A stretch of 55,698 bases of DNA from Alistipes sp. (GTDB lineage Bacteria > Bacteroidota > Bacteroidia > Bacteroidales > Rikenellaceae): positions 1-55,698 of the forward strand of contig JAFVRC010000048.1 in the NCBI GenBank assembly GCA_017504485.1, in the 5' to 3' direction. Shown here piece by piece: positions 11,704 through 41,045 of this stretch. A program made the translations under genes and the position numbers. The notes under the pieces were generated by a model. The model searched no databases and was not told the origin of the DNA. It worked only from the letters and a program-made list of their open reading frames with translations. Position 1 is the first letter of the stretch; every line of letters starts with the position of its first letter.

Positions 11704-13413
11704 CTACCACTCCGAGAGGTTGTAGGTGCTCTTCGGAGCATTAGGCACGTTAGGGAAGAAGGTGTGGCCAGTGAGTGCCTCTATCTCGGCGACGCTCTTC
11801 GTTTGGCGCGGAGCATTGGCGGCGTGGTCGAACCAGAAGCCTATGCATTTGAGTTCAGAGGCCAAGCACTCGTTGACGTGCTTGCCCGTAGAGCCGCTCT
11901 TCGTGCGCAGCAGCACCTTCCAATAGTGCGTAGGCACGGGGCAGGCCTTGCCGTGGCCTCTGTCGTCCCACGCATAGTCGTAGGTGACGCCCTTCTCGAA
12001 GTGAGCTCCAGTGACGACATAGAGCGTGTCGGAGCAGCTCCAGCTGCGCACATCCCCCTCGAGGTCTGCCCACGTTTCGCCATTGAGGCTCTGGAGCTGT
12101 GGCGTCATATTCGAGTAGTAGAAGGTCGTGTAGTTGTCCTCGTCGGAGGCCAGACGGTCGGCCGATGGCAGCTGGTGGCCTCGCGAGTGGGTATTCGTGT
12201 TGCCACCCTCGTCGTAGTACGACTTGGCGAGGTACGGCTCGTAATCGTTATCCACGCAGCAAGGGTCGTAGCCCCACTCATCGGTACGGCTTCCTGTGCC
12301 CGTCGTGTAGCAGCTGTGGAGCGGATAGGCTACCCAAAGAGCGCAATACTTCGACTTGTCGAAGCACATCGAGTAGTTGCGCAGGGTGTTGTTCGACGGC
12401 AGCTTCTCGTGAGTCCAATACTCCAAGTTGCTGTCCGACGTAGGCATCGCAGGCAGCTCGGCCCACCCCGTAGCCTTCGACATGTATTCGTAGTCGGAGG
12501 TTGTGGTGGCGGCCTCCTCGCCGATAGTCACCGTAACGTCGTGCACCTTGCCGCGCTCGAAGTTGAAGGCCGTGAGCGAGCCGTTGCGCGAGGCCGAGGC
12601 CCCCGACGAGGTGGCGACATATACCGATAAGTTGCCACTATATTTCATGGGTGCAATGAGCAGCCACGCATCGGCCGTAGCCCCTGCGGCGATTGTGCAA
12701 TTCGAGAGTGACAGCTCTACGGAGTTGCCGTAGCCGCCGTTGTTGAGCGCGATGGTGCCGTCTGCAAAACTCGTGATGCGGTATATGCCTGTCACGTTTG
12801 TGCTGCCGGCAAACGTGGCCGTAACACTTTGTGCTACAACGCTCTTGCTGCTCGCATTGTGCATCTTGACGCGCAGTAGCGAGTAGATATGGCGCATAGT
12901 GAATGTAGGCACGTTGGCCGACTCGCTCGATATGGTGGCGGTTGTCGAGGCTACCATACAGTCATTGCTCGACAGGTGGCCGAGCGACGTGCCGCTTTGC
13001 GACTGCGACGAAGGGAGCTTGTGTGTGCATTGCGCAGCGGTGAAGTAGCTGTACTGCGACGAGGTGGCATACTCGGCAATGAAGGTGTATTCGCCCGCAG
13101 GGAGCGTTGCCGAGCTGTTCTCGAAGAGGCCAGTCGCGGCGTTGTAGGTAAAACGCTTCGTGGTCGAGGCGGTGCTACCCCACGTTCCGTCGGTGGTGGC
13201 TACGCATATTACGTCGCCATCGCTCCACTCGACTGCCACCTCACCCGAGGCCGTAGCTTCGTAGCTTACTCGCGTGCCGTCGATGCGGAACGCTACCCTG
13301 CACTCGCCCTCGCCCGATATTGGTCGTTCAGCGTCGGCAGTCTGCACACACGACACTGCTCCGACAACTGCCGTGGCGCATACGAACATCAGTTTCAACC
13401 ACTTCATCCTCAT
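11704..13413 (-). CDS. Lipoprotein with fimbrillin-like region and DNA/RNA non-specific endonuclease (NUC1) domain
   Basis: 569 aa. The signal MKWLKLMFVCATAVVGAVSCVQ has a lipobox-like AVSC, and a start at 13407 (second ATG) is equally possible. Residues about 35-300 resemble the fimbrillin/Mfa-like fold of Bacteroidota: VEWSDGDVICVAT, then LPAGEYTFIAEY and the MRHIYSLLRVKM and IAPMKYSG blocks. The C-terminal 240 residues are a NUC1 nuclease with SRGHQLPSADR (the DRGH motif with Ser for Asp; the His is the general base), FYYSNMTPQ (metal-binding Asn) and WADLEGDV (Glu). It shares long stretches with the protein at 31048, for example RNYS.C and WVAYPLH. It should cut DNA or RNA outside the cytoplasm. 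The fimbrillin assignment is less certain than the nuclease. Confidence 0.88.
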   Translation of the reverse strand: MRMKWLKLMFVCATAVVGAVSCVQTADAERPISGEGECRVAFRIDGTRVSYEATASGEVAVEWSDGDVICVATTDGTWGSTASTTKRFTYNAATGLFENSSATLPAGEYTFIAEYATSSQYSYFTAAQCTHKLPSSQSQSGTSLGHLSSNDCMVASTTATISSESANVPTFTMRHIYSLLRVKMHNASSKSVVAQSVTATFAGSTNVTGIYRITSFADGTIALNNGGYGNSVELSLSNCTIAAGATADAWLLIAPMKYSGNLSVYVATSSGASASRNGSLTAFNFERGKVHDVTVTIGEEAATTTSDYEYMSKATGWAELPAMPTSDSNLEYWTHEKLPSNNTLRNYSMCFDKSKYCALWVAYPLHSCYTTGTGSRTDEWGYDPCCVDNDYEPYLAKSYYDEGGNTNTHSRGHQLPSADRLASDEDNYTTFYYSNMTPQLQSLNGETWADLEGDVRSWSCSDTLYVVTGAHFEKGVTYDYAWDDRGHGKACPVPTHYWKVLLRTKSGSTGKHVNECLASELKCIGFWFDHAANAPRQTKSVAEIEALTGHTFFPNVPNAPKSTYNLSEW

Positions 13414-27875: not shown

Positions 27876-27903
27876 TTGCGGCGCACTACCCTAATCTCTC
27901 GAA

Positions 27904-27939
27904 GAGGATGTTCGACGATGTTTCGGACATCCTCTTTTT
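27904..27939 (+). terminator. Rho-independent terminator after the M16 protease gene
   Basis: GAGGATGTTCGA (27904-27915) pairs with TCGGACATCCTC (27923-27934) with one G-U pair, loop CGATGTT, then five T. It lies 28 nt after the stop codon. Confidence 0.92.
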
Positions 27940-28036: not shown

Positions 28037-28044
28037 TATCTTTG
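28037..28044 (+). promoter_or_regulatory. -7 element at the head of the nucleic-acid locus, with long A-rich leader
   Basis: TATCTTTG here would start a transcript near 28050, giving a leader of about 250 nt before the ATG at 28304. No exact TTTG lies 20 nt upstream (TTTC is nearest). The stretch 28200-28303 has almost no G and no Shine-Dalgarno site. I see no gene in 27940-28303, on either strand, and no known riboswitch. Confidence 0.6.
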
Positions 28045-28303: not shown

Positions 28304-30949
28304 ATGAAAGCAAGAAAGTTTTTTGCATTTGTAGCCGGAGCAGCAATGCTGTTCGGTGCTGTGGGTTGTACGACCGATGATGCGGAGAAGGCAAATGACA
28401 CCGAGAAGTGTGTCATCACCGTTGCTCCGGAGAGCGTTGCTACAACTTTGGAGGGCGGCGACTGCGCCGTTACGGTTACGACGAATGGCAGCTGGACGGC
28501 AAGCTGCGACGTAGAGGGCGTAGCCGTTACTCCGGCCGAGGGTACGGGCAATGCCGAGGTCGTTATTACGGTGCCTGAGACCGACAAGGCTCGCAACTTC
28601 TCGGTTGTGTTCAATGCCGAGAAGATGGTTACTGTCGAGGGTTACTCTTCGCTGTCGCACGACGATGCTACTGTTACCGTTTATCAGAACGCAAGCGGCG
28701 ACGACAGCGTGGAGACCAATGTTGCCGAGGTTCGCGCACTGTTGGAGGCTCTGAATCCAACGAAGAACGGCGTAGAGGTTACCGCGGAGATCGCTGCTAT
28801 GACCTTGACAGGTGTCGTTATCGCCGAGCCTGACAGCAATATGGGTAACAATAAGACGATTGCTATTCAGGATGACGATAATGCTGCAAATGGCGGTTTG
28901 ACTATCTACTGCACCGACAACGTGAGTGACGACCTTGAGATTGGCAATATCGTAAACATCAATTTGACGGGTGCCAAGGCCGCGCTGTACGGCGGTCAGC
29001 TTCAGGTTTCGAATATCGCATCGACGGCTATCGTTGCCGATGGCTCGGCTAATGTGACGGCTATCGACGTTACGCTCGACAATATCCTCGACTACGAGTC
29101 GCAGTATGTGAAGTTGAGCGGTGTTAGCCCTGTGCAGAGTTTTGTAGGCCAGGCGTGGAACGATACGGGCTCGACTCGCAATGTTACCTTTACGACCGAG
29201 GATGGCAAGACCTTCGATGTACGCGTAAGTGCATACGCCTCGTTCAAGGATGAGATTATCCCCGGCAAGACGGGCAGCCTTTGCGGTTGCGCAGGTGTGT
29301 ATAACGGAGCTGTTCAGTTGTGGCCACAAACTTCGAGCGATATTCAGCTCACTAACGATATTGTCTCTCTCACGGCTGATGATATTGTCGGCGTTTCGGC
29401 AGACGGAGTAGCCGATGCAACAGCGGAGATTAACGCTATGAATATTTCGGGTGCGATTACCGCTACGCCTGATGGTGTTGTCGTAACGAAGGCCGAGGTT
29501 TCGGGCTCGACACTCACCTATACGGTGTCGGCCAATACCACAGCGGATACACGCGAGGGTTCGATTGTTCTCTCGGCTGCGGGCGTAGAGGATGTGACGA
29601 TTAAGGTTTCGCAGCTCGCTGCGGGCAAGACCACTATCGATATCAAGGATGTTATCGCAGATGCAGAAGTTACTATTCGCGGTTTGGTTTCGGCCGTGGG
29701 TAGCAAGGCTGCTGTCTTGACCGATGCTACAGGCTCGATTCTTTTGTATTACAACAAGGTTCCTGCAGTTGCTCTTGGTGACGACGTAGAGGTTAAGGGC
29801 ACAGCTATCCGTTATAAAGGTTTTCCTACCAACTCTTTGCAGATTGATATGACCACGGTTGCCGAGGGCGATGTTGTAGTTCATTCGAGCGGCAATACCG
29901 TAAGCTACAACCCTACCGTACTCGATGGCGCAGCTATCGACGGAATGGTTGGCAAAGATGCCGATTGTATCGAGGTGCAGTTTGAGGGTACCTTGAATAT
30001 CGGTCAATATGCAAATGTTACGATTGAGGGCGGAAACAAGCAGGCTTCGCTCTACTATGTAGATACAAATAACTATGCTGCGTATAATGGCGCAAAGGTT
30101 GTCGTTAAGGGTTATGTGACCGGTACATACAACTACCTCAACGTATTGCCATATTCGGTAACCAGCGAGGCTAAGGTTATTATGTGCGACGATATTGTCG
30201 TGCCTGCTGATGGCGCAACCGATGAGGTTGCCAACTTCACGGCTCTGAACATCACGGGCGCAATTACCGCTACGCCTGACGGTGTTGTCGTAACGAAGGC
30301 CGAGGTTTCGGGCAGTACGGTTATCTACTCGGTAGGCGCAAACACCGGCGAGGCTCGCGAGGGCTCGATTACCCTCTCGGGTGATGGTGTCGTGGTTGTG
30401 GTAAAGGTTTCGCAGGCCAAGAAGCCGGCAGAGGGTGCAGGTTCGTATGAGCTTACTCTCGCAGATATAACCTCCATAACTTACTCCGACAGTTGGTGCG
30501 ATTGGACCAAGACCGCAGCTGATGGCTCGTTGTGGAGCGGCTTTGCCTACAAGCAGACGAAGTACTATCAGTTCAGTTGGAGCGATAAGGATGGTAAGAA
30601 TGCTCCTAGTGCGGATCAGAACAAGGCGTATATGCTCCTCCCTGCTGTTCCTGCGGGTAAGACGATTACCAAGATTACCATTACTCCGTATGTGGAAGGA
30701 AACACTACGACCACTAACGGTCGTAAGTTCGTTGTGTTGCCGGCAGACTTTGCATATACAACAACTATAGATTCGGCCGCTACTGAGGCTGTGAATGCTG
30801 CTTATGCTATTTCGGCCGCAACCGTTAAGAATTCGACGGACCCGATAGTTATCGATTTGAGCGGTGTTGCGAATCTGCCACAGCAGGTGCAGGTTCGTGC
30901 TATTCTGGGTGCTGCGTACATTTCGAGCATAAAGGTTGAGTTCGAGTAA
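28304..30949 (+). CDS. Surface lipoprotein with BACON-like and DUF5689/OB-fold-like modules
   Basis: 881 aa. Signal MKARKFFAFVAGAAMLFGAVGC has lipobox GAVGC; TTDDAEK after the Cys is acidic, like surface-export tags of Bacteroidota lipoproteins. A BACON-like module spans about 36-130 (ITVAPESVATTLEGGDCAVTV). A DUF5689-type domain follows at about 145-350 (VAEVRALLEAL, TGVVIAEPDSNMGNNKTIAIQD). Two near-identical modules with the block NISGAITATPDGVVVTKAEVSGS (about 380 and 650) flank an OB-fold-like region with VTIRGLVSAVGSKAAVLTDATGSILLYY. The C-terminal 160 residues look like a beta-sandwich. OB-fold-like parts suggest nucleic-acid binding, supported by nuclease neighbours. No catalytic motif seen. 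Confidence 0.85.
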   Translation: MKARKFFAFVAGAAMLFGAVGCTTDDAEKANDTEKCVITVAPESVATTLEGGDCAVTVTTNGSWTASCDVEGVAVTPAEGTGNAEVVITVPETDKARNFSVVFNAEKMVTVEGYSSLSHDDATVTVYQNASGDDSVETNVAEVRALLEALNPTKNGVEVTAEIAAMTLTGVVIAEPDSNMGNNKTIAIQDDDNAANGGLTIYCTDNVSDDLEIGNIVNINLTGAKAALYGGQLQVSNIASTAIVADGSANVTAIDVTLDNILDYESQYVKLSGVSPVQSFVGQAWNDTGSTRNVTFTTEDGKTFDVRVSAYASFKDEIIPGKTGSLCGCAGVYNGAVQLWPQTSSDIQLTNDIVSLTADDIVGVSADGVADATAEINAMNISGAITATPDGVVVTKAEVSGSTLTYTVSANTTADTREGSIVLSAAGVEDVTIKVSQLAAGKTTIDIKDVIADAEVTIRGLVSAVGSKAAVLTDATGSILLYYNKVPAVALGDDVEVKGTAIRYKGFPTNSLQIDMTTVAEGDVVVHSSGNTVSYNPTVLDGAAIDGMVGKDADCIEVQFEGTLNIGQYANVTIEGGNKQASLYYVDTNNYAAYNGAKVVVKGYVTGTYNYLNVLPYSVTSEAKVIMCDDIVVPADGATDEVANFTALNITGAITATPDGVVVTKAEVSGSTVIYSVGANTGEAREGSITLSGDGVVVVVKVSQAKKPAEGAGSYELTLADITSITYSDSWCDWTKTAADGSLWSGFAYKQTKYYQFSWSDKDGKNAPSADQNKAYMLLPAVPAGKTITKITITPYVEGNTTTTNGRKFVVLPADFAYTTTIDSAATEAVNAAYAISAATVKNSTDPIVIDLSGVANLPQQVQVRAILGAAYISSIKVEFE
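29453..30313 (+). repeat. Pair of in-frame 54-nt direct repeats within the lipoprotein gene
   Basis: Copies at 29453-29506 and 30260-30313 differ at two positions by my reading. The distance of 807 nt is 269 codons, so recombination between them would delete or duplicate one module without a frameshift. Only the end coordinates of the pair are given here. Confidence 0.85.
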
Positions 30950-30971
30950 TCGAGCTCGACACCCATACAAT

Positions 30972-30998
30972 CCAAGGCAGGCTGACTACCTGCCTTGG
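30972..30998. other. Strong hairpin without T-tract between lipoprotein and NUC1 genes
   Basis: CCAAGGCAGG (30972-30981) and CCTGCCTTGG (30989-30998) form a perfect 10-bp stem with loop CTGACTA. No T run follows, so it is unlikely to be a complete terminator. It may stabilise the 3' end of a processed lipoprotein transcript. Confidence 0.8.
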
Positions 30999-31047
30999 GT
31001 ACTAATTTAGCGGAACGAATAGGATTTTTGTAGAGCCGACACAAAGA

Positions 31048-32319
31048 ATGAGAGATTGGATTAGAGATTTACAGTGCGTACTGAAAGGCATCAACCGCAA
31101 TGTTACGATTGTGTTGGTGCTTATATTCGCTTTTGCGGGGTGCTCCGAGGAGGAACTCCCTTGGTCGCCATACCCTTCGAAGGCTACAATTGCGTACTCC
31201 ACAATCAACTTCGACCAAACGTCGGTGTCGGGCACTACGGTGGGCGATTCGCGCTTCTCGTGGAGCCTTGCGGTGGAGGAGGGCTCGGCGTTCTGCCGAG
31301 CGAAGGCGACAAGTGGGCAGGTGGGCACATCCTTTACCCTGCTCTTCGATCGCAACGACGGCGCAACATCCTCGCGCACGGCAAAGGCAACCATAACCTT
31401 CACGAATGGCTACACGAGAACATTTGTCATCGAGCAGCTTGGCGAGTCGTCGAATGGTGAGTTCGAGCGTGCGTGGGGCGAGCAGCCCGACTACAAGTCG
31501 AATACGGCCTATGCCTATAAGACCTACTTTACGACATTGCGCAACGGACAGCGCGTGCGCAACTACTCGATATGCTACGACACGGAGAAGCTCGTGTCGC
31601 ACTGGGTGGCCTATCCGCTCCACAAGATATACACGGATAGAGGCACCTACAAGGCCGGAAATTCGAATGGCCGCACCGATGCGTGGGCATTCGACGATGC
31701 CGTATGTGAATATATCTCCTCTTCGCCATACTACAGAGTCGTAGAGTATGACTATACCGACCCTGTAATTCCGCAATCGCAACAGTGGTATGCCACCGCA
31801 ACCTACGGAGGTGGCTACGCTCGAGGCCATATGCTTCCATCGGCCTCGCGATATAACACCTTCAACACCAATGCGCAGACCTTCTATTCGACCAACATCA
31901 TGCCGCAGGCCTACGACTTCAACGGCGGCTCGTGGTCAAACCTCGAAATCAAGGTGCGCAGTTGGGCTTGTGCGGATACGCTCTACGTCGTTGTGGGTAC
32001 ACTCTTTGAGGGCACGAAAAAGCTGACGAAGAGTGGCCGCACGACACTTGTGCCGTCGCACGCCTTCAAGCTCGTGTTGCGCACCAAGAGTGGCACGACG
32101 GGCAAGCGCTTACAGGATATAACCTCGGCCTCTGAGCTCAAATGCATAGGTTTCCTCTACGAGAACAGCAACTCCGAGGAGGAAACAACCCCCGCGGAAG
32201 CGGCCATATCGGTAGCCGACATAGAGCGACGCTCGGGCTTTAAGTTCTTCCGCAATCTCAACCCTAAAGTTGCGGATGAGGTGAAGGCGCAGAAGAGCTT
32301 GAGCGATTGGGGTATATAA
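31048..32319 (+). CDS. DNA/RNA non-specific endonuclease lipoprotein (NUC1)
   Basis: 423 aa. The N-terminus has a charged start and then VTIVLVLIFAFAGCSEEE, with lipobox FAGC and acidic residues after the Cys, so surface exposure is plausible. Residues about 40-135 form a BACON-like beta domain (ATIAYSTINFDQTSVSGTTV). The C-terminal nuclease has YARGHMLPSASR (ARGH in place of DRGH; the catalytic His is kept), FYSTNIMPQ (metal-binding Asn) and WSNLEIKVRSW (Glu). It should cleave DNA and RNA endonucleolytically with Mg. Clear paralogue of the protein at 11704. Gap of 36 bp to the next nuclease gene. Confidence 0.92.
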   Translation: MRDWIRDLQCVLKGINRNVTIVLVLIFAFAGCSEEELPWSPYPSKATIAYSTINFDQTSVSGTTVGDSRFSWSLAVEEGSAFCRAKATSGQVGTSFTLLFDRNDGATSSRTAKATITFTNGYTRTFVIEQLGESSNGEFERAWGEQPDYKSNTAYAYKTYFTTLRNGQRVRNYSICYDTEKLVSHWVAYPLHKIYTDRGTYKAGNSNGRTDAWAFDDAVCEYISSSPYYRVVEYDYTDPVIPQSQQWYATATYGGGYARGHMLPSASRYNTFNTNAQTFYSTNIMPQAYDFNGGSWSNLEIKVRSWACADTLYVVVGTLFEGTKKLTKSGRTTLVPSHAFKLVLRTKSGTTGKRLQDITSASELKCIGFLYENSNSEEETTPAEAAISVADIERRSGFKFFRNLNPKVADEVKAQKSLSDWGI

Positions 32320-32355
32320 AGATGAAAGAAGATTAAACAAATAAATAAACCTCTT

Positions 32356-33387
32356 ATGAAAAGAACACTTTTATCCATTTTGTGCGTCTCGGCGATGCTA
32401 CTCGCATTCGCACAAAAGCCCTACAAGGTGATGTTCTACAACTTCGAGAACCTCTTCGACACGCTGAATGACCCTGCGACCTTCGACGAGGAGTTTACGC
32501 CGAAGGGCGGTAAGGCCTGGAACACGACGAAGTACAACAAGAAGCTCGGCAACCTCGAGCGTGTGTTGTTCGATATAGCCCTTATCGACAAGGACTACCC
32601 TGCCGTAATCGGTGTTTCGGAGATCGAGAACCGTATGGTGCTGGAGGATGTCATCGCACAGCCGAAGCTCCGCCCTGCGAACTACCGTATCGTGCATTTC
32701 GACTCGCCCGACCGTCGTGGTGTGGATTGTGCCTTCTTCTATCGTCCCGATGTCTTTAAGTTGGAGGGCAGCAAGGCCGTGAAGTTCAATATGCCGGGTA
32801 TGCCCAACTTTTATACGCGCGACTTCGTGACGATGTGGGGCACGATTGACGGCGAGCCGTTCTACTTTGTGGTGTCGCACTGGCCATCGCGCCTCGGCGG
32901 CAAGGAGGCTTCGTCGCCAAAGCGCGAGGCAGCCGCTGCGCAGTGTCGCGCTCTGGCCGACTCGGTACGCAAGGCAAACCCTGCAACCAAGGTGGTTATT
33001 ATGGGTGACTTGAACGACGATGCAACGGACAAGAGCGTCATGGAGATTCTTGGCGGCAAGGGCAATATCAAGAAACTCGTCGAGGGCGATATGTACAACC
33101 CGTATGTTGATATGTTGCGTGCCGGCTACGGAACGCTCGCCTATCGCGATGCGTGGAACCTCTTCGATAATATCGTAATCTCCGAGAATCTTGCCACTGC
33201 CTCGACCGGCGCACTCAAGATACAGAAGGCCCCGAAGGCCAAGTTCTACGGCAATATCTTCCGCGCCCCGTACCTCTTCCAGCGCGAGGGGCAGTACAAG
33301 GGCTACCCTCTCCGTACCTTCGTGGGCAACAACTTCCAGGGTGGTTTCAGCGACCACCTTCCGGTATATATCTACATCGGCAAATAA
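32356..33387 (+). CDS. Exported endonuclease/exonuclease/phosphatase family nuclease
   Basis: 343 aa. Signal peptide MKRTLLSILCVSAMLLAFA, cleavage before QKPYK. EEP-fold catalytic residues are visible in order: VMFYNFENLFD (Asn), VIGVSEIENRMVLE (metal-binding Glu), VDCAFFYRPD, VVSHWPSRLGG (His-Trp), IMGDLNDD (Asp/Asn) and GFSDHLPVYIYI at the end (Asp-His). This set matches DNase I-like phosphodiesterases. In the periplasm or at the surface it could cut DNA or RNA fragments; a phosphatase role cannot be excluded. It lies between the NUC1 lipoprotein and the TonB receptor, 22 bp from the latter. Confidence 0.93.
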   Translation: MKRTLLSILCVSAMLLAFAQKPYKVMFYNFENLFDTLNDPATFDEEFTPKGGKAWNTTKYNKKLGNLERVLFDIALIDKDYPAVIGVSEIENRMVLEDVIAQPKLRPANYRIVHFDSPDRRGVDCAFFYRPDVFKLEGSKAVKFNMPGMPNFYTRDFVTMWGTIDGEPFYFVVSHWPSRLGGKEASSPKREAAAAQCRALADSVRKANPATKVVIMGDLNDDATDKSVMEILGGKGNIKKLVEGDMYNPYVDMLRAGYGTLAYRDAWNLFDNIVISENLATASTGALKIQKAPKAKFYGNIFRAPYLFQREGQYKGYPLRTFVGNNFQGGFSDHLPVYIYIGK

Positions 33388-33409
33388 GAAACTATATAAA
33401 CAGTAAGAG

Positions 33410-36400
33410 ATGAAACTGAAAATTTTACTTTGGATTGCGGCGGCAGTGGCGGCAGTTATTGCCGGCGTAGCAATCTTTGCTCCGAAGCAGGATAAGGCTG
33501 TCGAGGAGCAACAGACCGTAGTGGCCGAGGAGCCTATTGAGGAGCCCGCCATTGAGCCACAGGCTCCGGTCGTAGAGGAGCCGACGACCACCGAAGCGGA
33601 GGAGGTTGCGGCAAAGGCTGAGGCGGAGCGACTCGCTGCCGAGAAGCGCCAGCAGCAAGCGGCGGCCAAACGTCGTGCGGCCGAGGCAGAGGCAGAGAAG
33701 CGTCGCGCGGCAGCAGCAAAGGCCGAGGTCGAGCGTCTTGCGGCCGAAAAAGCTGAAGCCGAGCGTGTGGCTGCCGAGCAGGCGGCAATTGTAGCCAAGG
33801 CTGAGGCGGAGCGTATAGCCGCCGAAAAGGAGGCTGCGGCAAAGGCTGAGGCAGAGCGACTCGCTGCCGAGAAGCGCCAACAGCAACAGCAGGCTCTGGC
33901 CGCCATTTCGGGCGGTGTGAAGGGCCGCGTAGTGTCGCGCACGAACCGTGCGGCGGTAAATAACGTGAAGGTGACTATCGCGGGAACTGATCGCGGTGTG
34001 GTGACCGATAATAGCGGCAACTTCGTAATCGAGGGTGTGCCGGCCGGCGACTATACGTTGCAGTTTGCTGCTCCGGAGTACGAGAACCTCGATGTCGTGG
34101 TCAAGGTAGGCCCCGAGATGAAGGATATCAACACGGTGGTTGTAGCTCCGACGATGGTCAATGAGGTGATGGACGACTCGATATTTGCCGAGTACGACAA
34201 CGACTCGTCGGCCTCCGATATGCAGGCTCTCCCTTCGTCGCTCTCTGCCTCGAAGGATCTCTACAACAATATCGCCTCGTATCGCTTCAGCGAGATGCGC
34301 TTCAACGTGCGCGGCTACGACTCAAAGTACAGCGATATCTACTTGAACGGCATACGTTTCAACGATGCACTGACGGGTTACGGCCCGTGGTCGCTGTGGA
34401 GCGGTATGAACGACGCTACGCGTAATCAGGAGAGCACGTCGGGAATCACGGCCAGCGACTATGGCATTGGTGGTTTCGGCGGCTCGACAAACATCAATGC
34501 TCGCGCCTCGCAGATGCGCAAGGGCTTCCGCGCAAGCGTGTCGGGTGGTAACCAGATGTATAACTTCCGCGCTATTTTGTCGTATGCTTCGGGTATGCTC
34601 GACAGCGGATGGTCGTATGCCTTCTCGGTATCGACTCGCCAGGGTGGTAACTGCTATGTCGATGGAGTGTACTACAACTCGTATGGCTACTTTGCGGCTG
34701 TCGAGAAGCAGTTCAATCCGCAGCACCGACTCTCGCTTATGGTCCTCGGCACGCCGCAACAGCGCGGTGCGCAGCAGGCTTCGACACAGGAGGCCTACGA
34801 TATGTTCGGCAGCAACTACTACAACCCTAACGTGGGCTTCCAGGATGGTAAGTTGCGCAATACGCGCGTGCGCCGCTCGCATGAACCTATTATTATGCTC
34901 AACTACTTCTACGACATCAACGATAAGACTCGTCTGACGGCCGCCACATCGGTGCGCTTCGGCTTCAACGGCTACTCGGCATTGACGTGGAAGGATGGTG
35001 CTGACCCGCGTCCGGACTACTACCGCTATCTGCCGTCGAACTACACGAGTCAGATTGTGTCGAGTGACTACGGCTCGTTCCTTGCCGACAATATCGGAGG
35101 GCTGATCGAGCGAGGTCTTGTGAGCGAGGCTGTCGGTGCGATGCGCGACAATCGCATAACACCTGCCGTGCCAGGCGTCTTTCAGCCATCCTCGGCCGAC
35201 CAGATTTTCGACTATCTCGATGCCGCAGCCGGCGCACGTAATATCTGGACCGGTCGTATGGATTTCGATAATATGATTAACTCGAATCGCAACGGTATAG
35301 CATCGCCTTATGCCGACGGCCACCGCTCGAACTACATTATCGAGGAGCGTCATACCGACCAGATAGACTATAATTTCGCAGCCAATATCGCGCACGAAAT
35401 CAATAATAATCACCGCATAATCGGTGGTTTGAAGGCGCGTGTAAACCGCACGGAGTACTACGACAAGGTTAAGGATCTGCTGGGTGGCGACTTTTGGATA
35501 GATATCGACAAGTTCGCCGAGCGCGATATGGGTAGCAACGTAACGGCCTACCAGAACGATCTCGACTATTATAACGAGCACGGACATCCGCGTGTAGTGC
35601 GCGAGGGCGACAAGTTCTCGTATGACTACTATGCTCACATCCGTCAGGTGCGGCTCTGGGCTATGTACTCGCTTCGCCTCGGAAGCTTTGCGATGAACCT
35701 GGGTGCCGAGGCCGGCTATGCAGGTATGTGGCGTGAGGGTTTGTGGCGCAAGGGCCTCTTTGCCGAGGGTAACGAGTCGAAGGGCGATTCGAAGCATCTC
35801 AATTACCTGACCTACAAGGCCAAGGCTAACTTCTCATATCGCTTCTCGAATGCGCACGAGTTGGTGCTTAATGCCGCAGCTATTCAGGATGCACCAACCT
35901 TCAACTCGGCATTCGTCTCGCCGCGTACCCGTAACCATACGACGCAAGGCCTGACAACCGAGAAGATTTACAGTGCAGAGCTTACCTATAACCTCAATTT
36001 GCCGTACATTCAGGCTCGCGTGTCGGGTTACTTTACCAAGATGAATGACGGCGCGAAGGTTATCTCGTTCTACGACGATACACAGTCGTCGTTCACTAAC
36101 TTCGCAATGAGTGGCATTGACAAGCGTTATGCGGGTGTCGAGGTGGCTCTGCGAGTGCCAATCTGGGGTGGCATCGCGCTGCAAGGCGCTCTCAACTATG
36201 GCGACTACCGCTATACGTCGAACCCTACGTTTGTGCAGACGGTAGATAACAGCGCCGAGGTAAAGCTCATCGACAAGGTCTATTGGAAGAACTTCTATGT
36301 CGAGAGCACACCGCAGTTTGCGGCCAACGTAGGTCTCGACTTCCGTGGTCCGAAGAACTGGTTTGCATCCATCAACTTCAACTACTATGACAAGCTCTAC

Positions 36401-36796
36401 CTCTCGATGAACCCTGCATATCGCACAAACAACGCTATCGAGCCGTATGTCAAGTTGCTGCTCAACGGCACGTCGGATCAGCAGATTTGGGCTTTGCAGA
36501 GCATCGCGGCCATTCGCGCTCAGGAGGATTTGGGCGATGCGTGGACCCTCGCGGCCAGCGTGGGCAAGAACTGGTACATAGCGCGTAAATACACGCTCGG
36601 ATTTAGTGCCGAGGTGAAGAATATACTCAATAATCAGGGTATCCGCACGGGAGGTTATGAGCAGATGCGTATGCGCCGTGTCCGCGGTTTGGACAACGAT
36701 GGCAACCCTGCAACCAACTACTACTCGCGCTTCGATTCCAAGTACTTCTATATGCTGGGAACCACCTGCTTCGTGAATGTATATTTCCGCTTCTAA
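33410..36796 (+). CDS. TonB-dependent receptor with N-terminal TolA-like anchor and coiled coil
   Basis: 1128 aa. Residues 5-24 are hydrophobic (ILLWIAAAVAAVIAGVAIFA) after MKLK and lack a convincing signal-peptidase site because Pro follows FA. Residues 30-62 are Pro/Glu rich. Residues 63-163 are almost only Ala, Glu, Lys, Arg and Gln with repeated AEAERLAAEKR units, as in TolA. Then come a carboxypeptidase-regulatory-like domain (168-247, KGRVVSRTNRAAVNNVKV), a plug (FNVRGYDSKYSDIYLNGIRFND near 300) and a barrel ending CFVNVYFRF with terminal Phe. It should import a substrate across the outer membrane with TonB energy. Nuclease neighbours suggest oligonucleotides. The N-terminal extension is unusual for this family. 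Confidence 0.93.
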   Translation: MKLKILLWIAAAVAAVIAGVAIFAPKQDKAVEEQQTVVAEEPIEEPAIEPQAPVVEEPTTTEAEEVAAKAEAERLAAEKRQQQAAAKRRAAEAEAEKRRAAAAKAEVERLAAEKAEAERVAAEQAAIVAKAEAERIAAEKEAAAKAEAERLAAEKRQQQQQALAAISGGVKGRVVSRTNRAAVNNVKVTIAGTDRGVVTDNSGNFVIEGVPAGDYTLQFAAPEYENLDVVVKVGPEMKDINTVVVAPTMVNEVMDDSIFAEYDNDSSASDMQALPSSLSASKDLYNNIASYRFSEMRFNVRGYDSKYSDIYLNGIRFNDALTGYGPWSLWSGMNDATRNQESTSGITASDYGIGGFGGSTNINARASQMRKGFRASVSGGNQMYNFRAILSYASGMLDSGWSYAFSVSTRQGGNCYVDGVYYNSYGYFAAVEKQFNPQHRLSLMVLGTPQQRGAQQASTQEAYDMFGSNYYNPNVGFQDGKLRNTRVRRSHEPIIMLNYFYDINDKTRLTAATSVRFGFNGYSALTWKDGADPRPDYYRYLPSNYTSQIVSSDYGSFLADNIGGLIERGLVSEAVGAMRDNRITPAVPGVFQPSSADQIFDYLDAAAGARNIWTGRMDFDNMINSNRNGIASPYADGHRSNYIIEERHTDQIDYNFAANIAHEINNNHRIIGGLKARVNRTEYYDKVKDLLGGDFWIDIDKFAERDMGSNVTAYQNDLDYYNEHGHPRVVREGDKFSYDYYAHIRQVRLWAMYSLRLGSFAMNLGAEAGYAGMWREGLWRKGLFAEGNESKGDSKHLNYLTYKAKANFSYRFSNAHELVLNAAAIQDAPTFNSAFVSPRTRNHTTQGLTTEKIYSAELTYNLNLPYIQARVSGYFTKMNDGAKVISFYDDTQSSFTNFAMSGIDKRYAGVEVALRVPIWGGIALQGALNYGDYRYTSNPTFVQTVDNSAEVKLIDKVYWKNFYVESTPQFAANVGLDFRGPKNWFASINFNYYDKLYLSMNPAYRTNNAIEPYVKLLLNGTSDQQIWALQSIAAIRAQEDLGDAWTLAASVGKNWYIARKYTLGFSAEVKNILNNQGIRTGGYEQMRMRRVRGLDNDGNPATNYYSRFDSKYFYMLGTTCFVNVYFRF
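33608..33886 (+). repeat. Pair of 51-nt direct repeats in the coiled-coil coding region
   Basis: Copies at 33608-33658 and 33836-33886 differ at two positions by my reading and encode AAKAEAERLAAEKRQQQ twice. The 228-nt spacing is 76 codons, so slippage or recombination would change coil length in frame. Confidence 0.85.
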
Positions 36797-36823
36797 TGTA
36801 GCATTTCAAAACAAGAAGAGATT

Positions 36824-38332
36824 ATGAAACAGATAAAGATATTTTTGATTGCCATACTCGGATTGACGCTCACAAGTTGCTACGAGCAGTTCGACGAGCC
36901 GCAGCCTACGCAACTCTATAACGACGAGAGCTTCGAGGCGCAAAATCCGGACTATCAGCAGGTGTCCATCGCCACGATGAAGGGGTGGTTTGGCAATATA
37001 AGCAACACGGGAAACAATACCGACCGTAGCGATACGAAGTATATTCACTTCGTCGTAAATGCCGAGGAGGAGTGCGATGAGTTCACGCTCAAGAAGGGCT
37101 GGTATCGCGAAGGTAAGTACTACATCAAGGGTAAGGTTATCTCCAACGACGAGCAGGGCAACATCTACAAGTCGCTCTACATCTTCGACGGCACGGGAGC
37201 CATCGAGCTTAAACTCACGAATGGCCTCTTCCTTGACTACCCTTGCGACCTCGATTCGAAGCAGTCGATGTGGGTATATGTCAAGATTACGGGCCTATAC
37301 CTTGGCAACTTCCGTATGATGCTCTCGTTGGGCGATATCCCTACGTCGAGCTACAATGCGTGGGGTGCCTACAAGTACTACGCCAACTCGAATATCGTCA
37401 GCCCAATAAAGGTTCGTCAGTACGTCTTCCCGGGCGAGAAGGTCGAGCTTACGGAGGGTACGAACTATACGGACGATATCTACGTCGTGGATAAGAACAG
37501 CTACTCGACCATTTCGGGTAGCAATGCCACCAAGTTCTTCGGTCGTCTTATCCGCTTCAAGGGCTTGAAGGTGCACTATGCCGCAGTGCCTTACCTCGAT
37601 CACGATGGTACGGTGCGCGAAAATCCGGCATTGAAGAATGGTTCCTACAACTATATGTATCCGCAGTGGCTTTGTACGGCAGGCATTCCCGAGAACTTCG
37701 GCGGTGCGCCTACGCAGGTGGTTAATAAGCCGTGGTATCAGTTAGCCTACAGTCGCAATAACGTGGCACTCTATGGCAGCCTCGCTCTGCTCTACAACGA
37801 GTCGGCAACCTACACCTCCGACCACGGAGTATATACCCTGCGCACGAGCGGCTACTCGCGCTTTGCGGGCAAATATGCTCCTCGCCACGGAGAGATGGGC
37901 GACGTGTTGGCTATCTATGCTATCTACTCGAAACAGAGCACCTATGCGGGCGGTAGCCGTGACTATGCCACCTATCAGCTCTCCATTCCGCGATTGAAGG
38001 ATGCTACGTTCAAGATGGAGCCTGTGGATGACGGCTCAGCAATGTGGAATCAGTGGGCCGCACTGCTCAAATATGCCGAGGATAGCTTCCCGAGTTATGC
38101 GCAATATCCGGTTATTTCGGGCCGCACGGGCTCGCAGGAGGAGCGCAACGTTGCCGTAGAGGCGTGGAAGCAGGATTATACGGCTCGTATGAACGCTATT
38201 GCCGACGACGGCACGGAACTTTACGATGAGTGGAAGTCGTGGTTTGAGTGGTGCGTGTGGACAATCGAGAATACCACCGAGGAGTCCTACATGTTGCCGC
38301 AGTTGATCAACGATGACGATGACTTGGAGTAA
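36824..38332 (+). CDS. DUF5689-type lipoprotein (OB-fold-like)
   Basis: 502 aa. Signal MKQIKIFLIAILGLTLTSCYEQ has lipobox LTSC. The region about 45-270 has the DUF5689 look: IATMKGWFGN, then YYIKGKVISNDEQGNIYKSLYIFDGTGAIELKL and SMWVYVKITGLYLGNFRMMLSLG, which read as an OB-fold barrel. A second half from about 300 (WYQLAYSRNNVALYGSLALLY) resembles a beta-sandwich seen in related Bacteroidota lipoproteins. No catalytic motif. It follows the TonB receptor by 27 bp, the place SusD would take in a polysaccharide locus, so a substrate-capture role for nucleic acid is my inference. Confidence 0.85.
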   Translation: MKQIKIFLIAILGLTLTSCYEQFDEPQPTQLYNDESFEAQNPDYQQVSIATMKGWFGNISNTGNNTDRSDTKYIHFVVNAEEECDEFTLKKGWYREGKYYIKGKVISNDEQGNIYKSLYIFDGTGAIELKLTNGLFLDYPCDLDSKQSMWVYVKITGLYLGNFRMMLSLGDIPTSSYNAWGAYKYYANSNIVSPIKVRQYVFPGEKVELTEGTNYTDDIYVVDKNSYSTISGSNATKFFGRLIRFKGLKVHYAAVPYLDHDGTVRENPALKNGSYNYMYPQWLCTAGIPENFGGAPTQVVNKPWYQLAYSRNNVALYGSLALLYNESATYTSDHGVYTLRTSGYSRFAGKYAPRHGEMGDVLAIYAIYSKQSTYAGGSRDYATYQLSIPRLKDATFKMEPVDDGSAMWNQWAALLKYAEDSFPSYAQYPVISGRTGSQEERNVAVEAWKQDYTARMNAIADDGTELYDEWKSWFEWCVWTIENTTEESYMLPQLINDDDDLE

Positions 38333-38348
38333 TATATGAACAACAGAT

Positions 38349-38378
38349 AGCTCGTCTTGTGTGGCGAGCTGTTTTTTT
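38349..38378 (+). terminator. Probable terminator/attenuator within the nucleic-acid locus
   Basis: AGCTCG (38349-38354) pairs with CGAGCT (38365-38370) and is followed by GTTTTTTT. The stem is short, so termination may be partial. It separates the five upstream genes from the two S1/P1 nuclease genes. No promoter is seen between here and 38393. Confidence 0.6.
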
Positions 38379-38392
38379 AGCCTCGAAGAGAT

Positions 38393-39241
38393 ATGAAACG
38401 AATAGTTGTACTGATTGTTATGCTTACGGTGCTTGGCACGACGGCCTTCGCTTGGAGTGTGCGAGAGCATGCCACGGTGGCGCAGATTGCCGAGAATCAC
38501 CTCTCGCCCAAGGCTCGAAAACTCATCTCGAAGTATCTCGATGGCCGTCCGATGGCCTACTACGCCTCGCACGCGGATTACTATCGCAAAGATATGTTGG
38601 TCGATGTGGGCTTTGTGCGCGAGGATGGCTCGCGATTGGTCGTATTTCCTCACACCTTCCACGTCGATAGGAAGTTGAGAGCCTACCGCGATGTGGTAAA
38701 GAACGACGGTAAGATTTTTGGCAATATGCTCTATCACATAGACCGCCTCGCCTCTAACCTCAAAGAGAATCACCGCGCGATGAACGACTCGGTGCGCCTC
38801 ACCCATCTATACCTCATAATTCACGGCATAGGAGATATGCACTGCCCTATGCACATGCGCTTTGCAGAGCATAATGACGAGAAGTATAAGTCGCTCGGCA
38901 CCTATCAAGTGCTCTTTGGCAAGAACAAGAAGTGGCGCAAGATTGGTTACCACGCCATGTGGGATGCGCACATGGTCGGCCCGATACATCCGTGGGGCTA
39001 TGAGGATATGGCTCGCCTTTTCGATATCTACAACAAGCGCGAGGTGGCCCGCATCTGCGAGGGTGACATCTTCGCTTGGGGTGGCGAGGTGGCCAAGGTG
39101 GCCTACCCTATGCGCGAATATGGCCCTAATGCAAAGATTGACGAAATAGAGTATCGCCGCCGATATCAGCAGACGGCCGAGAACCTGTTGGCACAGGCGG
39201 GCTATCGTCTTGCAAAGGTGTTGAACGAGATATTGAAATAA
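38393..39241 (+). CDS. S1/P1-type zinc nuclease (first of tandem pair)
   Basis: 282 aa. Signal peptide MKRIVVLIVMLTVLGTTAFA; cleavage leaves an N-terminal Trp (WSVREH), as S1/P1 enzymes need because Trp1 binds zinc. With mature numbering, His6, Asp42, a His in HTFHVD, HGIGDMHCPMH (His, Asp at +4, His at +10) and YHAMWD (His, Asp at +4) supply all the zinc ligands known in P1. The enzyme should degrade single-stranded DNA and RNA to 5'-nucleotides and remove 3'-phosphates in the periplasm. The next gene, 10 bp on, is a paralogue. Confidence 0.93.
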   Translation: MKRIVVLIVMLTVLGTTAFAWSVREHATVAQIAENHLSPKARKLISKYLDGRPMAYYASHADYYRKDMLVDVGFVREDGSRLVVFPHTFHVDRKLRAYRDVVKNDGKIFGNMLYHIDRLASNLKENHRAMNDSVRLTHLYLIIHGIGDMHCPMHMRFAEHNDEKYKSLGTYQVLFGKNKKWRKIGYHAMWDAHMVGPIHPWGYEDMARLFDIYNKREVARICEGDIFAWGGEVAKVAYPMREYGPNAKIDEIEYRRRYQQTAENLLAQAGYRLAKVLNEILK

Positions 39242-39251
39242 TAAATGTGCT

Positions 39252-40067
39252 ATGAAACGTATAATCATCCTCTCTCTCGCAGCTACAATGCTTTGCACAA
39301 CCAGTTACGGTTGGGGACGACGCGAGCACGCTACGGTGGCTCAGATTGCCGAAAATCATCTTACGCCCAAGGTCAAGAGGCTCGTGACGAAGTATCTCGG
39401 TGGCCGCTCGATGGTCTATTATTCGTGTTATGCCGACGACTATCAACCGCTCTATATCGACCTTGGCTGGGAGCCGTCGAACTACCGCCGTATGGCGATG
39501 TTTCCGCACACCTACTGCGTGGATGGAGATTGCAAGCCGCCGCACCATATTAAGGATGGCGATAGGTATGTGAAAAACACGCTCTACTTTATCGACAAAT
39601 GGTCGCGCGAATTGAAGGAACAGCACGGTGCGATGAACGACTCCACGCGCCTCGTGCACCTCGCTCTTATAATTCACGCTGTGGGTGATATGCACTGTCC
39701 GGTGCATATCCGCTACCCCGACGACGAGACGCTCGGGGTCTATAAGGTAAAACTCGGTAAGCGCGAGGTCAATTACCACCGCCTCTGGGATGCCGATATT
39801 ATCGGCAAATACAATCCGTGGGGCTACAACGAGTTGGCTCGCCAATATGACACTTTCAGCAAGCACCAGGCTGCCGAGGTGGTCGAGGGGGATATCTATC
39901 AGTGGGGCGAGGATGCTGCACGTCGCGGATTGCCGGCTCGTCGCTATAAGAAGGGCGCGAAAATCAACCAACAAGAGTTTATGCGCGAATTTACTCCTGT
40001 GGCCGAGGATTTGATCTGCCGCGCGGGTTATCGCCTCGCTGCGTTGCTGAACGACACGTTCAAGTAG
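39252..40067 (+). CDS. S1/P1-type zinc nuclease (second of tandem pair)
   Basis: 271 aa. Signal peptide MKRIIILSLAATMLCTTSYG; cleavage exposes WGRREH, with Trp1 and His6. HAVGDMHCPVH and YHRLWD supply the central ligands. At the His60-equivalent the first paralogue has HTFHVD but this one has HTYCVD, so a zinc-binding His is replaced by Cys. It is close to its neighbour in the first 35 mature residues (EHATVAQIAENHL), so a tandem duplication is likely, followed by divergence. Substrate range may differ. A two-way terminator follows. Confidence 0.92.
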   Translation: MKRIIILSLAATMLCTTSYGWGRREHATVAQIAENHLTPKVKRLVTKYLGGRSMVYYSCYADDYQPLYIDLGWEPSNYRRMAMFPHTYCVDGDCKPPHHIKDGDRYVKNTLYFIDKWSRELKEQHGAMNDSTRLVHLALIIHAVGDMHCPVHIRYPDDETLGVYKVKLGKREVNYHRLWDADIIGKYNPWGYNELARQYDTFSKHQAAEVVEGDIYQWGEDAARRGLPARRYKKGAKINQQEFMREFTPVAEDLICRAGYRLAALLNDTFK

Positions 40068-40810: not shown

Positions 40811-40911
40811 TGCCAAACGAACTAAATGCTACGTATGCATAAGTGGTGCATACACAAACAAAGCCGAGCCCTGTAGGGCCTATGTTTAGAGGGAAGCTTT
40901 TTGAAAAAAGA

Positions 40912-41008
40912 GGGTAAGCTACTTATATCGCACCGCTACAACCGCATACCCTTGCTCAATTCCTTGCCTGGGGGAGTTCTGCAGGAGCTGGTCGTATAAG
41001 ACTTACCC
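40912..41008 (-). ncRNA. ffs: Signal recognition particle RNA (4.5S-like)
   Basis: The minus strand folds into one long hairpin: 5' GGGTAAG (41008-41002) pairs with 3' CTTACCC (40918-40912), and TCTTATA pairs with TATAAG inside. The apex has CAGG, stem CAA, tetraloop GGAA, stem TTG and AGCA in that order, which is the symmetric loop and GNAR tetraloop of SRP domain IV that binds Ffh. A TCTTTTTT tract follows the stem. The promoter predicts a start at 41008. This is the small SRP RNA without an Alu domain. Confidence 0.9.
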
Positions 41009-41013
41009 GGGTG

Positions 41014-41045
41014 CAAAAGTAGAACTTTTTTTGTATCTTTGCAAA
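41014..41045 (-). promoter_or_regulatory. SRP RNA promoter
   Basis: Minus-strand TTTG (41045-41042) and TACTTTTG (41021-41014) are 20 nt apart. The start is predicted at 41008, exactly the base of the RNA stem. Confidence 0.85.
41034..41041 (+). promoter_or_regulatory. -7 element of mltG, abutting the SRP RNA -33 box
   Basis: TATCTTTG, ending 17 nt before the mltG ATG. It directly adjoins the TTTG of the opposing SRP RNA promoter, so polymerase should not be able to occupy both at once. Confidence 0.7.

What the first reader, a model, noticed from the sequence alone, without database searches (positions are those of the whole stretch)
28304..40067. Putative nucleic-acid utilisation locus: two OB-fold-like lipoproteins, four nucleases and a TonB receptor
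Seen: seven plus-strand genes with gaps of 10-98 bp encode, in order, a DUF5689/BACON-like lipoprotein, a NUC1 endonuclease lipoprotein, an EEP-family nuclease, a TonB-dependent receptor, a second DUF5689-type lipoprotein and two S1/P1 nucleases. All carry export signals or, in the receptor, an N-terminal anchor. Known: NUC1, EEP and S1/P1 enzymes degrade DNA/RNA, and S1/P1 enzymes also act as 3'-nucleotidases. Inference: a PUL-like system for scavenging extracellular DNA or RNA as a source of phosphate, nitrogen or nucleosides, without SusD; the DUF5689 lipoproteins would capture substrate. No sensor or regulator is encoded within it.
Basis: partly seen in the sequence, partly recalled or inferred. 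Interest (0 to 1): 0.85.

Follow-up and report, generated by a model that had tools for sequence, protein, structure and literature searches.

The report
DNA-uptake operon plus added nuclease pair
A gut bacterium carries an outer-membrane gene set related to one that another bacterium needs to take up DNA, and behind it two members of a nuclease family that has multiplied strikingly in its genus, often as an active copy followed by a copy that has lost its metal site.

Summary
The seven genes are at the stated places, but they are two things. (1) Five genes (DUF5689/BACON lipoprotein, NUC1 lipoprotein, EEP nuclease, TonB-dependent receptor, DUF5689 lipoprotein) form an operon-like block kept in the genus. 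Its core, receptor plus downstream DUF5689 (60 of 63 loci) with a nearby EEP nuclease (54 of 63), is spread over the class Bacteroidia. The receptor/DUF5689 pair appears homologous, through Flavobacteriaceae, to RA0C_RS04915/RS04920, essential for natural transformation in Riemerella anatipestifer (PMC8459023). I read it as a TonB-driven nucleic-acid importer, not a PUL. (2) The two S1/P1 nucleases are an add-on: none at this place in 17 of 17 genus relatives examined. They belong to an expansion of at least 37 S1/P1 genes in this 1.9-Mb genome. Other copies form tandem arrays in which a catalytic gene is followed by a zinc-ligand-poor copy (139 of 150 neighbours alternate), the pair being the unit that duplicates. 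A DeoD-S1/P1-S1/P1 cluster hints at nucleoside salvage. Substrate, transport and fate (recombination or food) are inferred. The Riemerella proteins themselves were not compared, and the window's DUF5689b fails the Riemerella-named lipoprotein model NF052645.

The parts
28304..30949 (+). DUF5689 + BACON lipoprotein (DUF5689a), probable surface capture protein
   Evidence: Pfam DUF5689 2e-22, BACON 7e-9; lipobox-like VGC by eye; a match at this place in 16 of 17 genus loci, the 17th (L098) cut off by its contig
31048..32319 (+). NUC1 (Endonuclease_NS) lipoprotein
   Evidence: Pfam 2.9e-36; RGHM motif; NUC1 match upstream of the receptor in 17 of 17 genus loci, near the receptor in 21 of 63 loci overall
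32356..33387 (+). EEP-family nuclease with signal peptide
   Evidence: Exo_endo_phos_3 7e-113; EEP within 4 kb of the receptor in 54 of 63 loci, class-wide
33410..36796 (+). TonB-dependent receptor with CarboxypepD_reg domain, no SusD partner; residues about 20-165 are a TolA-like extension not seen in the relatives' receptors
   Evidence: extension:
36824..38332 (+). DUF5689 lipoprotein (DUF5689b) directly behind the receptor
   Evidence: Pfam 1.7e-19; Cys19 invariant in all 17 aligned sequences; DUF5689 directly downstream of the receptor in 60 of 63 loci
38393..39241 (+). S1/P1 nuclease a, add-on not seen here in the relatives examined
   Evidence: Pfam 1e-22; 9 of 9 zinc ligands; absent from 17 of 17 genus loci
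39252..40067 (+). S1/P1 nuclease b, add-on, sister of a
   Evidence: Pfam 4e-29; 9 of 9 zinc ligands; sister support 0.984
27901..27937 (+). terminator-like hairpin (15 pairs) between the M16 peptidase gene and the operon
   Evidence: 15 sites found in the region, 11.3 expected by chance
28037..28044 (+). possible Bacteroidales -7 element TATCTTTG upstream of the operon (motif recalled)
   Evidence: no full -33/-7 match here

Best explanation
The first five genes encode an outer-membrane nucleic-acid uptake machine. DUF5689 lipoproteins on the cell surface bind DNA (or RNA). The NUC1 lipoprotein cuts it, as the related EndA does in pneumococcal competence (recalled). The TonB-dependent receptor draws it across the outer membrane. 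The EEP nuclease processes it in the periplasm. The receptor/DUF5689 pair is related to the pair that R. anatipestifer needs for natural transformation. In this lineage two S1/P1 nucleases with Sec-type N-termini, probably periplasmic, stand behind the block, drawn from a family that has expanded to at least 37 copies, so that much of what enters is probably digested to nucleosides and phosphate; ComEC is present for any strand that reaches the inner membrane. Shown: gene content, class-wide synteny, catalytic motifs and ligands, absence of the S1/P1 pair from the relatives examined, the expansion and the enzyme-pseudoenzyme pairing. Inferred: substrate, transport, location, division of labour and fate.
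For: DUF5689 directly downstream of the receptor in 60 of 63 loci, EEP within 4 kb in 54 of 63. Receptor family bimodal in the class: 24 of 119 genomes at 709 bits or more, the next at 310, and 55 of 60 genomes of a family that named neighbours show to be Flavobacteriaceae at 350 bits or more. In both Flavobacterium-like genomes checked (G118, G148) the only DUF5689 gene stands beside this receptor, and PMC8459023 reports adjacent Flavobacterium homologues of RS04915/RS04920. RS04920 is described as DUF5689+DUF5017, choice-of-anchor J; 8 of 12 receptor-adjacent DUF5689 proteins of relatives carry choice-of-anchor J above cut-off and L107, L155, L156 DUF5017. NCBIfam NF052645, named after R. 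anatipestifer M949_1556, is met at 753 bits (cut-off 475) by a DUF5689 protein next to the receptor and an EEP gene in G079. tonB mutations lower transformation in R. anatipestifer. S1/P1 side.
Against: The RS04915/RS04920 sequences were not in hand; the link is by architecture, synteny and homology through Flavobacterium (window receptor to G118 receptor 28% identity, E 2e-115). The window's DUF5689b has no DUF5017 or choice-of-anchor J and fails NF052645 (20.6 bits against 475); so do 11 of 12 relatives' proteins tested, the Flavobacterium-like one included (193 bits). F. johnsoniae has the homologues but was not competent under the conditions tested (PMC8459023). Deleting M949_1556, the gene NF052645 is named after, is reported to change antigenicity/O-antigen (citing passages and titles), a different phenotype. 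The authors put the tonBB effect down to iron supply. ComEC is in 60 of 61 genomes, with and without the locus, and so says nothing. No structure supports DNA binding by DUF5689.
Confidence: 0.55

Rival explanations
1. Pure nutrition: a PUL-like system in which all seven genes scavenge extracellular DNA or RNA for phosphate, nitrogen or nucleosides, with no part in transformation.
For: Nuclease-rich operon; S1/P1 expansion; DeoD-S1/P1-S1/P1 cluster in G000, G028 and G003; receptor locus and S1/P1 genes co-occur in the genus sample, 25 of 28 against 2 of 9.
Against: The S1/P1 pair is not part of the conserved block; related receptor/DUF5689 genes are experimentally tied to transformation (PMC8459023); the co-occurrence is not corrected for relatedness; no regulator or nucleoside transporter lies in the locus.
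Confidence: 0.22
2. The system handles another phosphodiester (surface polymer, phospholipid head groups, O-antigen), with EEP and NUC1 as general phosphodiesterases.
For: M949_1556 deletion in R. anatipestifer is reported to affect antigenicity/O-antigen; EEP-family enzymes can cleave non-nucleic phosphodiesters (recalled); the OB-fold of DUF5689 is not demonstrated.
Against: NUC1 and EEP carry nuclease catalytic motifs; related receptor and DUF5689 genes essential for transformation (PMC8459023); a PLD-domain protein with a DUF5689-like stretch stands beside the pair in G119.
Confidence: 0.13
3. For the S1/P1 expansion: secreted nuclease-immunity (toxin-antitoxin-like) pairs in arrays, the ligand-poor copy protecting against the active one.
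For: Active-dead pairing, distance correlation 0.907 for A followed by P against 0.438 for P followed by A; large arrays in several species.
Against: Catalytic copies without a ligand-poor neighbour are common (the window pair, L020, L021, L024-L027, L029-L031); no delivery domain seen; both partners have plain Sec-type N-termini (by eye); S1/P1 next to DeoD.
Confidence: 0.1

Closest known systems
RA0C_RS04915/RS04920 natural-transformation pair of Riemerella anatipestifer (PMC8459023)
   Same: CarboxypepD_reg outer-membrane receptor with a DUF5689 gene directly behind it in an operon; TonB mutations lower transformation there (PMC8383284)
   Different: The window block adds NUC1, a co-directional EEP and a second DUF5689/BACON lipoprotein; DUF5689b lacks DUF5017/choice-of-anchor J; role in this organism untested; that paper found RS04915 homologues only in Flavobacteriaceae, here related receptors are found across Bacteroidia including Bacteroidales
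Polysaccharide utilisation locus (SusC/SusD)
   Same: TonB-dependent receptor, lipoproteins and degradative enzymes in one block
   Different: No SusD, no carbohydrate-active enzyme and no regulator among the seven genes
EndA-type DNA-entry nuclease (NUC1 family, recalled)
   Same: Same Pfam family (PF01223) as the window NUC1, per recall; exported
   Different: Lipoprotein here; link to uptake only by gene neighbourhood
S1/P1 nucleases (SmNuc1 8qjl, P1, S1)
   Same: Family, and nine zinc ligands in the window pair and in 25 of 37 copies of this genome
   Different: Genus-level expansion; arrays alternate with a conserved clade that has lost most ligands but is predicted to keep the fold (TM about 0.70)

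Membership tests
Riemerella-type DNA-uptake pair | CarboxypepD_reg-bearing TonB-receptor-like outer-membrane protein | tested here: met
   PF13715 1.4e-13, PF13620 1.8e-12; Plug 4e-4, below its cut-off
Riemerella-type DNA-uptake pair | DUF5689 gene directly downstream | tested here: met
   27-bp gap; 60 of 63 relatives
Riemerella-type DNA-uptake pair | DUF5689 protein in NCBIfam NF052645 (M949_1556 family lipoprotein), with DUF5017/choice-of-anchor J | tested here: not met
   window DUF5689b 20.6 bits against 475 and no DUF5017 or choice-of-anchor J; of 12 relatives' proteins 1 (L168) meets NF052645 and 8 carry choice-of-anchor J
Riemerella-type DNA-uptake pair | Direct orthology to RA0C_RS04915/RS04920 | not testable with these tools
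   sequences not available; linked through Flavobacterium
Riemerella-type DNA-uptake pair | Required for natural transformation | not testable with these tools
   needs a mutant; the window is from an incomplete genome assembly
PUL | SusC/SusD pair | tested here: not met
   no SusD in the locus
S1/P1 nuclease (PF02265), window pair | Domain above cut-off and nine zinc ligands | tested here: met
S1/P1 nuclease (PF02265), ligand-poor copies | Nine zinc ligands | tested here: not met
   12 copies of the genome keep 1-6 of 9; 120 of 120 listed homologues of one of them keep 2-5
S1/P1 nuclease (PF02265), ligand-poor copies | Pfam cut-off | tested here: not met
   of 5 array-type ligand-poor copies scanned, 3 match below the cut-off and 2 not at all; others of the 12 did pass it
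S1/P1 nuclease (PF02265), ligand-poor copies | Fold | tested here: met
   one model, pLDDT 92.6; first 21 PDB hits all S1/P1 nucleases, TM about 0.70
NUC1 (PF01223) | Domain above cut-off and catalytic RGH motif | tested here: met
   (motif recalled)

The most novel reading that the evidence does not exclude
In one genus of gut Bacteroidales (relatives named Alistipes/Rikenellaceae) a transformation-type DNA importer has been turned into a nucleic-acid feeding system whose periplasmic stage is a modular set of S1/P1 enzyme-pseudoenzyme pairs. Each catalytic array nuclease is followed by its own co-evolving, zinc-free sister, which forms a cognate complex with it and sets substrate or activity. 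Duplication of the pair has built alternating arrays of up to about 30 genes.
Probability: 0.3. Interest if true: 0.87.

Novelty: new variant of a known kind. Interest (0 to 1): 0.72.

Why it matters
How DNA crosses the outer membrane of competent Bacteroidota such as R. anatipestifer, in which no pilus homologues were found (PMC8459023), is open. A class-wide receptor-DUF5689-nuclease module gives a testable candidate in gut bacteria and names candidate nucleases for the step that the Riemerella authors left to an unidentified protein. Separately, arrays of paired active and ligand-poor nucleases, duplicating as units, are an unusual natural experiment in pseudoenzyme function.

Tried and rejected
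PUL reading rejected (no SusD). Seven-gene unit rejected. Co-occurrence of ComEC with the receptor gave nothing, ComEC being in 60 of 61 genomes. ComEC or RecA neighbourhood as a bridge to Riemerella: none found in the 63 loci (ComEC by a one-sequence HMM, RecA by a recalled motif); a RecA-like gene, named by eye, lies next to a weaker, DUF5689-less receptor in G160, set aside. A mid-scoring receptor group (about 220-420 bits) has no DUF5689 beside it except in G001's second locus and was treated as other families. OB-fold test failed: DUF5689b model pLDDT 35 from 8 sequences, no PDB match. PDB sequence search with the profile of ligand-poor S1/P1 copies gave nothing; fold search did. Neighbours of the scattered S1/P1 genes are varied, with no common partner seen except DeoD in three genomes. 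Assembly collapse as the source of the array was rejected: median identity between the genome's copies is 27% and alternating arrays are seen in 14 genomes. Weak point: the genus genomes with large arrays, apart from G005, were not examined at the window's place, so the S1/P1 pair may occur there too. Literature: PMC searches. The slash in 'S1/P1' cannot be searched, so searches do not test whether S1/P1 arrays are in print; the titles and abstract starts of the 10 papers listed (of 13) name no such pairs. That is no proof of absence.
Full report
What is there. The seven ORFs and their short gaps (10-98 bp) are as described. Pfam confirms each family above its curated cut-off, the receptor's TonB plug alone falling just below. 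A terminator-like hairpin of 15 pairs lies between the preceding M16 peptidase gene and the operon, and a Bacteroidales-like TATCTTTG box lies about 260 bp upstream of the first gene (motif recalled; no full -33/-7 match). The next gene behind, a low-molecular-weight phosphatase, is on the other strand. The window is a contig of a 1.92-Mb, 82%-complete genome. The 10 named contigs with related receptors are Alistipes sp. or Rikenellaceae MAGs; the 7 whose title states a source come from ruminant caecum, colon or rectum.

Two parts. Around the receptor in 17 same-genus loci the order DUF5689a - NUC1 - EEP - receptor - DUF5689b recurs, although in some the NUC1-place protein is nearer to a second NUC1 lipoprotein of the window (11704-13413, minus). 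NUC1 and EEP matches are found in 17 of 17; DUF5689a is seen in 16 of 17, the other (L098) being cut off by its contig. No S1/P1 ORF lies in any of the 17 loci (gene calls, every ORF), 15 of which reach at least 4.9 kb behind the operon (L098 1.0 kb, L104 0.4 kb). The closest receptor, that of G005 (77-80% identical), has M16 behind its operon instead. So the S1/P1 pair was most simply added in the window's lineage; I looked at 17 of the 27 relatives that have the receptor, and not at the other genus genomes. By the receptor is absent or only paralogous in 9 of 37 genus genomes (my reading; a contig-end fragment in G009 counted as present).

The core is class-wide. A receptor profile (A1) scores 24 of 119 class genomes at 709 bits or more, the next at 310. 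Counting context with HMMs built from genus and order loci, DUF5689 lies directly downstream of the receptor in 60 of 63 loci, EEP within 4 kb in 54 of 63 and NUC1 within 6 kb in 21 of 63. On the 38 loci outside the training set the numbers are 36 of 38 for DUF5689 and 31 of 38 for EEP. EEP is co-directional in the 17 genus loci and three other Bacteroidales loci (L106, L151, L152) and on the opposite strand elsewhere. The loci without DUF5689 are L071, L157 and L234. The 63 are loci that I fetched because their receptor scored well.

Link to natural transformation. PMC8459023 (I read the abstract, sections 19-21 and passages, not the section with the deletion results) reports from a transposon screen that RA0C_RS04915 (a CarboxypepD_reg outer-membrane protein) and RA0C_RS04920 (DUF5689+DUF5017, choice-of-anchor J), one operon, are essential for natural transformation; the protein making single strands was left unidentified. 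PMC8383284 (abstract and one section) shows that tonBA and tonBB mutations lower transformation, with iron supply given as the reason for tonBB. I could not obtain the Riemerella sequences. The bridge is threefold. (a) A family shown by named neighbours to be Flavobacteriaceae carries the receptor in 55 of 60 sampled genomes at 350 bits or more. In G118 and G148 the only DUF5689 gene stands next to it; in all 11 genomes checked, chosen because they have the receptor, a DUF5689 gene does. The paper reports adjacent Flavobacterium homologues of both genes. (b) Of 12 receptor-adjacent DUF5689 proteins of relatives, 8 carry choice-of-anchor J above cut-off and L107, L155 and L156 carry DUF5017; G118's own protein (L167) carries neither. 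(c) NCBIfam NF052645, named for R. anatipestifer M949_1556 (a CH3 gene), is met at 753 bits, cut-off 475, by the receptor-adjacent DUF5689 protein of G079, which also has EEP beside it. The other 11 relatives' proteins match it below the cut-off (61 to 341 bits), and the window's own DUF5689b barely (20.6 bits). So I say that the window genes work like and are related to the pair, not that DUF5689b is a member of that lipoprotein subfamily. M949_1556 itself is reported to affect antigenicity/O-antigen (passages citing Zou et al. 2015).

The S1/P1 expansion. The window's genome has 32 Pfam S1/P1 matches. With a family HMM on the fetched neighbourhoods and the window there are 37 ORFs, 25 with all nine zinc ligands and 12 with 1 to 6. 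Of 36 genus relatives, 26 have a match, 15 of these exactly one, and the largest count is 12. In a class sample of 295 genomes no other genome among the rows listed has more than 3 matches or 6 first-look candidates (G000, with 37 candidates, is capped at 8 scored there; 82 genomes without a match are not listed). The window pair keeps all nine ligands, forms a sister pair (support 0.984) and belongs to a catalytic clade with L025, L027, L080 and L082 (0.999). Another catalytic pair lies behind a DeoD-type nucleoside phosphorylase gene in G000, G028 and G003, which suggests that S1/P1 products are salvaged as nucleosides.

Enzyme-pseudoenzyme pairs. On contig C11 18 S1/P1 genes stand in a row, nearly alternating between ligand-complete (A) and ligand-poor (P); 11 of the genome's 12 P copies directly follow an A. 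In 17 stretches of 14 genus genomes (16 fetched because a P profile hit them, plus C11), 139 of 150 adjacent pairs switch type, against 84.0 +/- 5.9 in within-array shuffles, maximum 108 of 10,000 (two intermediate genes kept as a class of their own; two copies truncated by a stretch end dropped; arrays share ancestry, so this is not a p-value). The largest, G473, has 30 genes in about 25 kb, one of them split by my stretch boundary. The distances between pairs correlate at 0.907 for A followed by P (74 pairs) against 0.438 for P followed by A (61); in the window's genome 0.757 (8 pairs) against 0.002 (7); the gap is also shorter from A to P (median 8.5 against 21 bp). The unit of duplication is therefore A then P. 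The array P copies in the tree form one clade (support 1.0), array A copies another (0.956). A second set of P copies, in second place of the five-gene arrays of G028, G029, G006 and G003 and of the four-gene array of G030, falls outside the P clade and so looks like an independent loss, though its exact place has low support (0.19). A database search with one P copy finds 125 homologues; all 120 listed keep only 2-5 ligands, H116 becoming N in 116. For the second set, the P copy is under purifying selection in the four five-gene arrays (dN/dS 0.09-0.26), somewhat weaker than in its A neighbours in most comparisons; dN/dS was not measured for the main P clade. A P model has pLDDT 92.6 and its first 21 PDB matches are all S1/P1 nucleases (TM about 0.70). 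So these look like conserved, folded pseudoenzymes, each with its own catalytic partner. What they do is unknown; I favour a cognate complex that tunes the enzyme.

How it most likely works. Surface DUF5689 lipoproteins bind nucleic acid, NUC1 trims it, the receptor imports it with TonB energy, EEP processes it in the periplasm, and S1/P1 enzymes (nuclease and 3'-nucleotidase by family, recalled) finish it to nucleosides and phosphate, while ComEC (present) could take any intact strand. All of this after the gene content is inference. Whether the organism recombines or eats the DNA cannot be told from sequence. Genus genomes with the receptor locus more often have S1/P1 genes (25 of 28 against 2 of 9, Fisher p 3.5e-4; 10 of 10 against 1 of 4 among genomes at least 90% complete, p 0.011, presence read by me), which favours a feeding link but is not corrected for relatedness or for incomplete genomes.

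Noticed in passing
33467-33904: The receptor carries an N-terminal extension (membrane-like segment and KAEAERLAAEK-type repeats, weak TolA similarity, 45-bp DNA repeat) that the relatives' receptors seen lack; their matches begin at residue about 142-183.
   Followed up: partly
11704-13413 (-): A second NUC1 lipoprotein; the protein at the NUC1 place of some relatives' operons is closer to this one than to the operon's NUC1.
   Followed up: partly
L189 (G000:C20:57454-58822), L190 (G001:C56): A second type of locus with two small DUF5689 genes, beside a receptor of about 812 aa in G001, which lacks the window operon.
   Followed up: partly
L074-L078: S1/P1 arrays of four or five genes whose second member is a ligand-poor copy, followed by a gene of 390-391 codons (PHP domain in the two scanned); in four of the five a small ribosomal-protein-like gene, named by eye, stands directly upstream.
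   Followed up: partly
40908-41015 (-): Bacteroidales small SRP RNA.
   Followed up: no
L163:12156-14372: In G119 a PLD-domain protein with a DUF5689-like stretch and a T9SS-type tail stands behind the receptor/DUF5689 pair.
   Followed up: no
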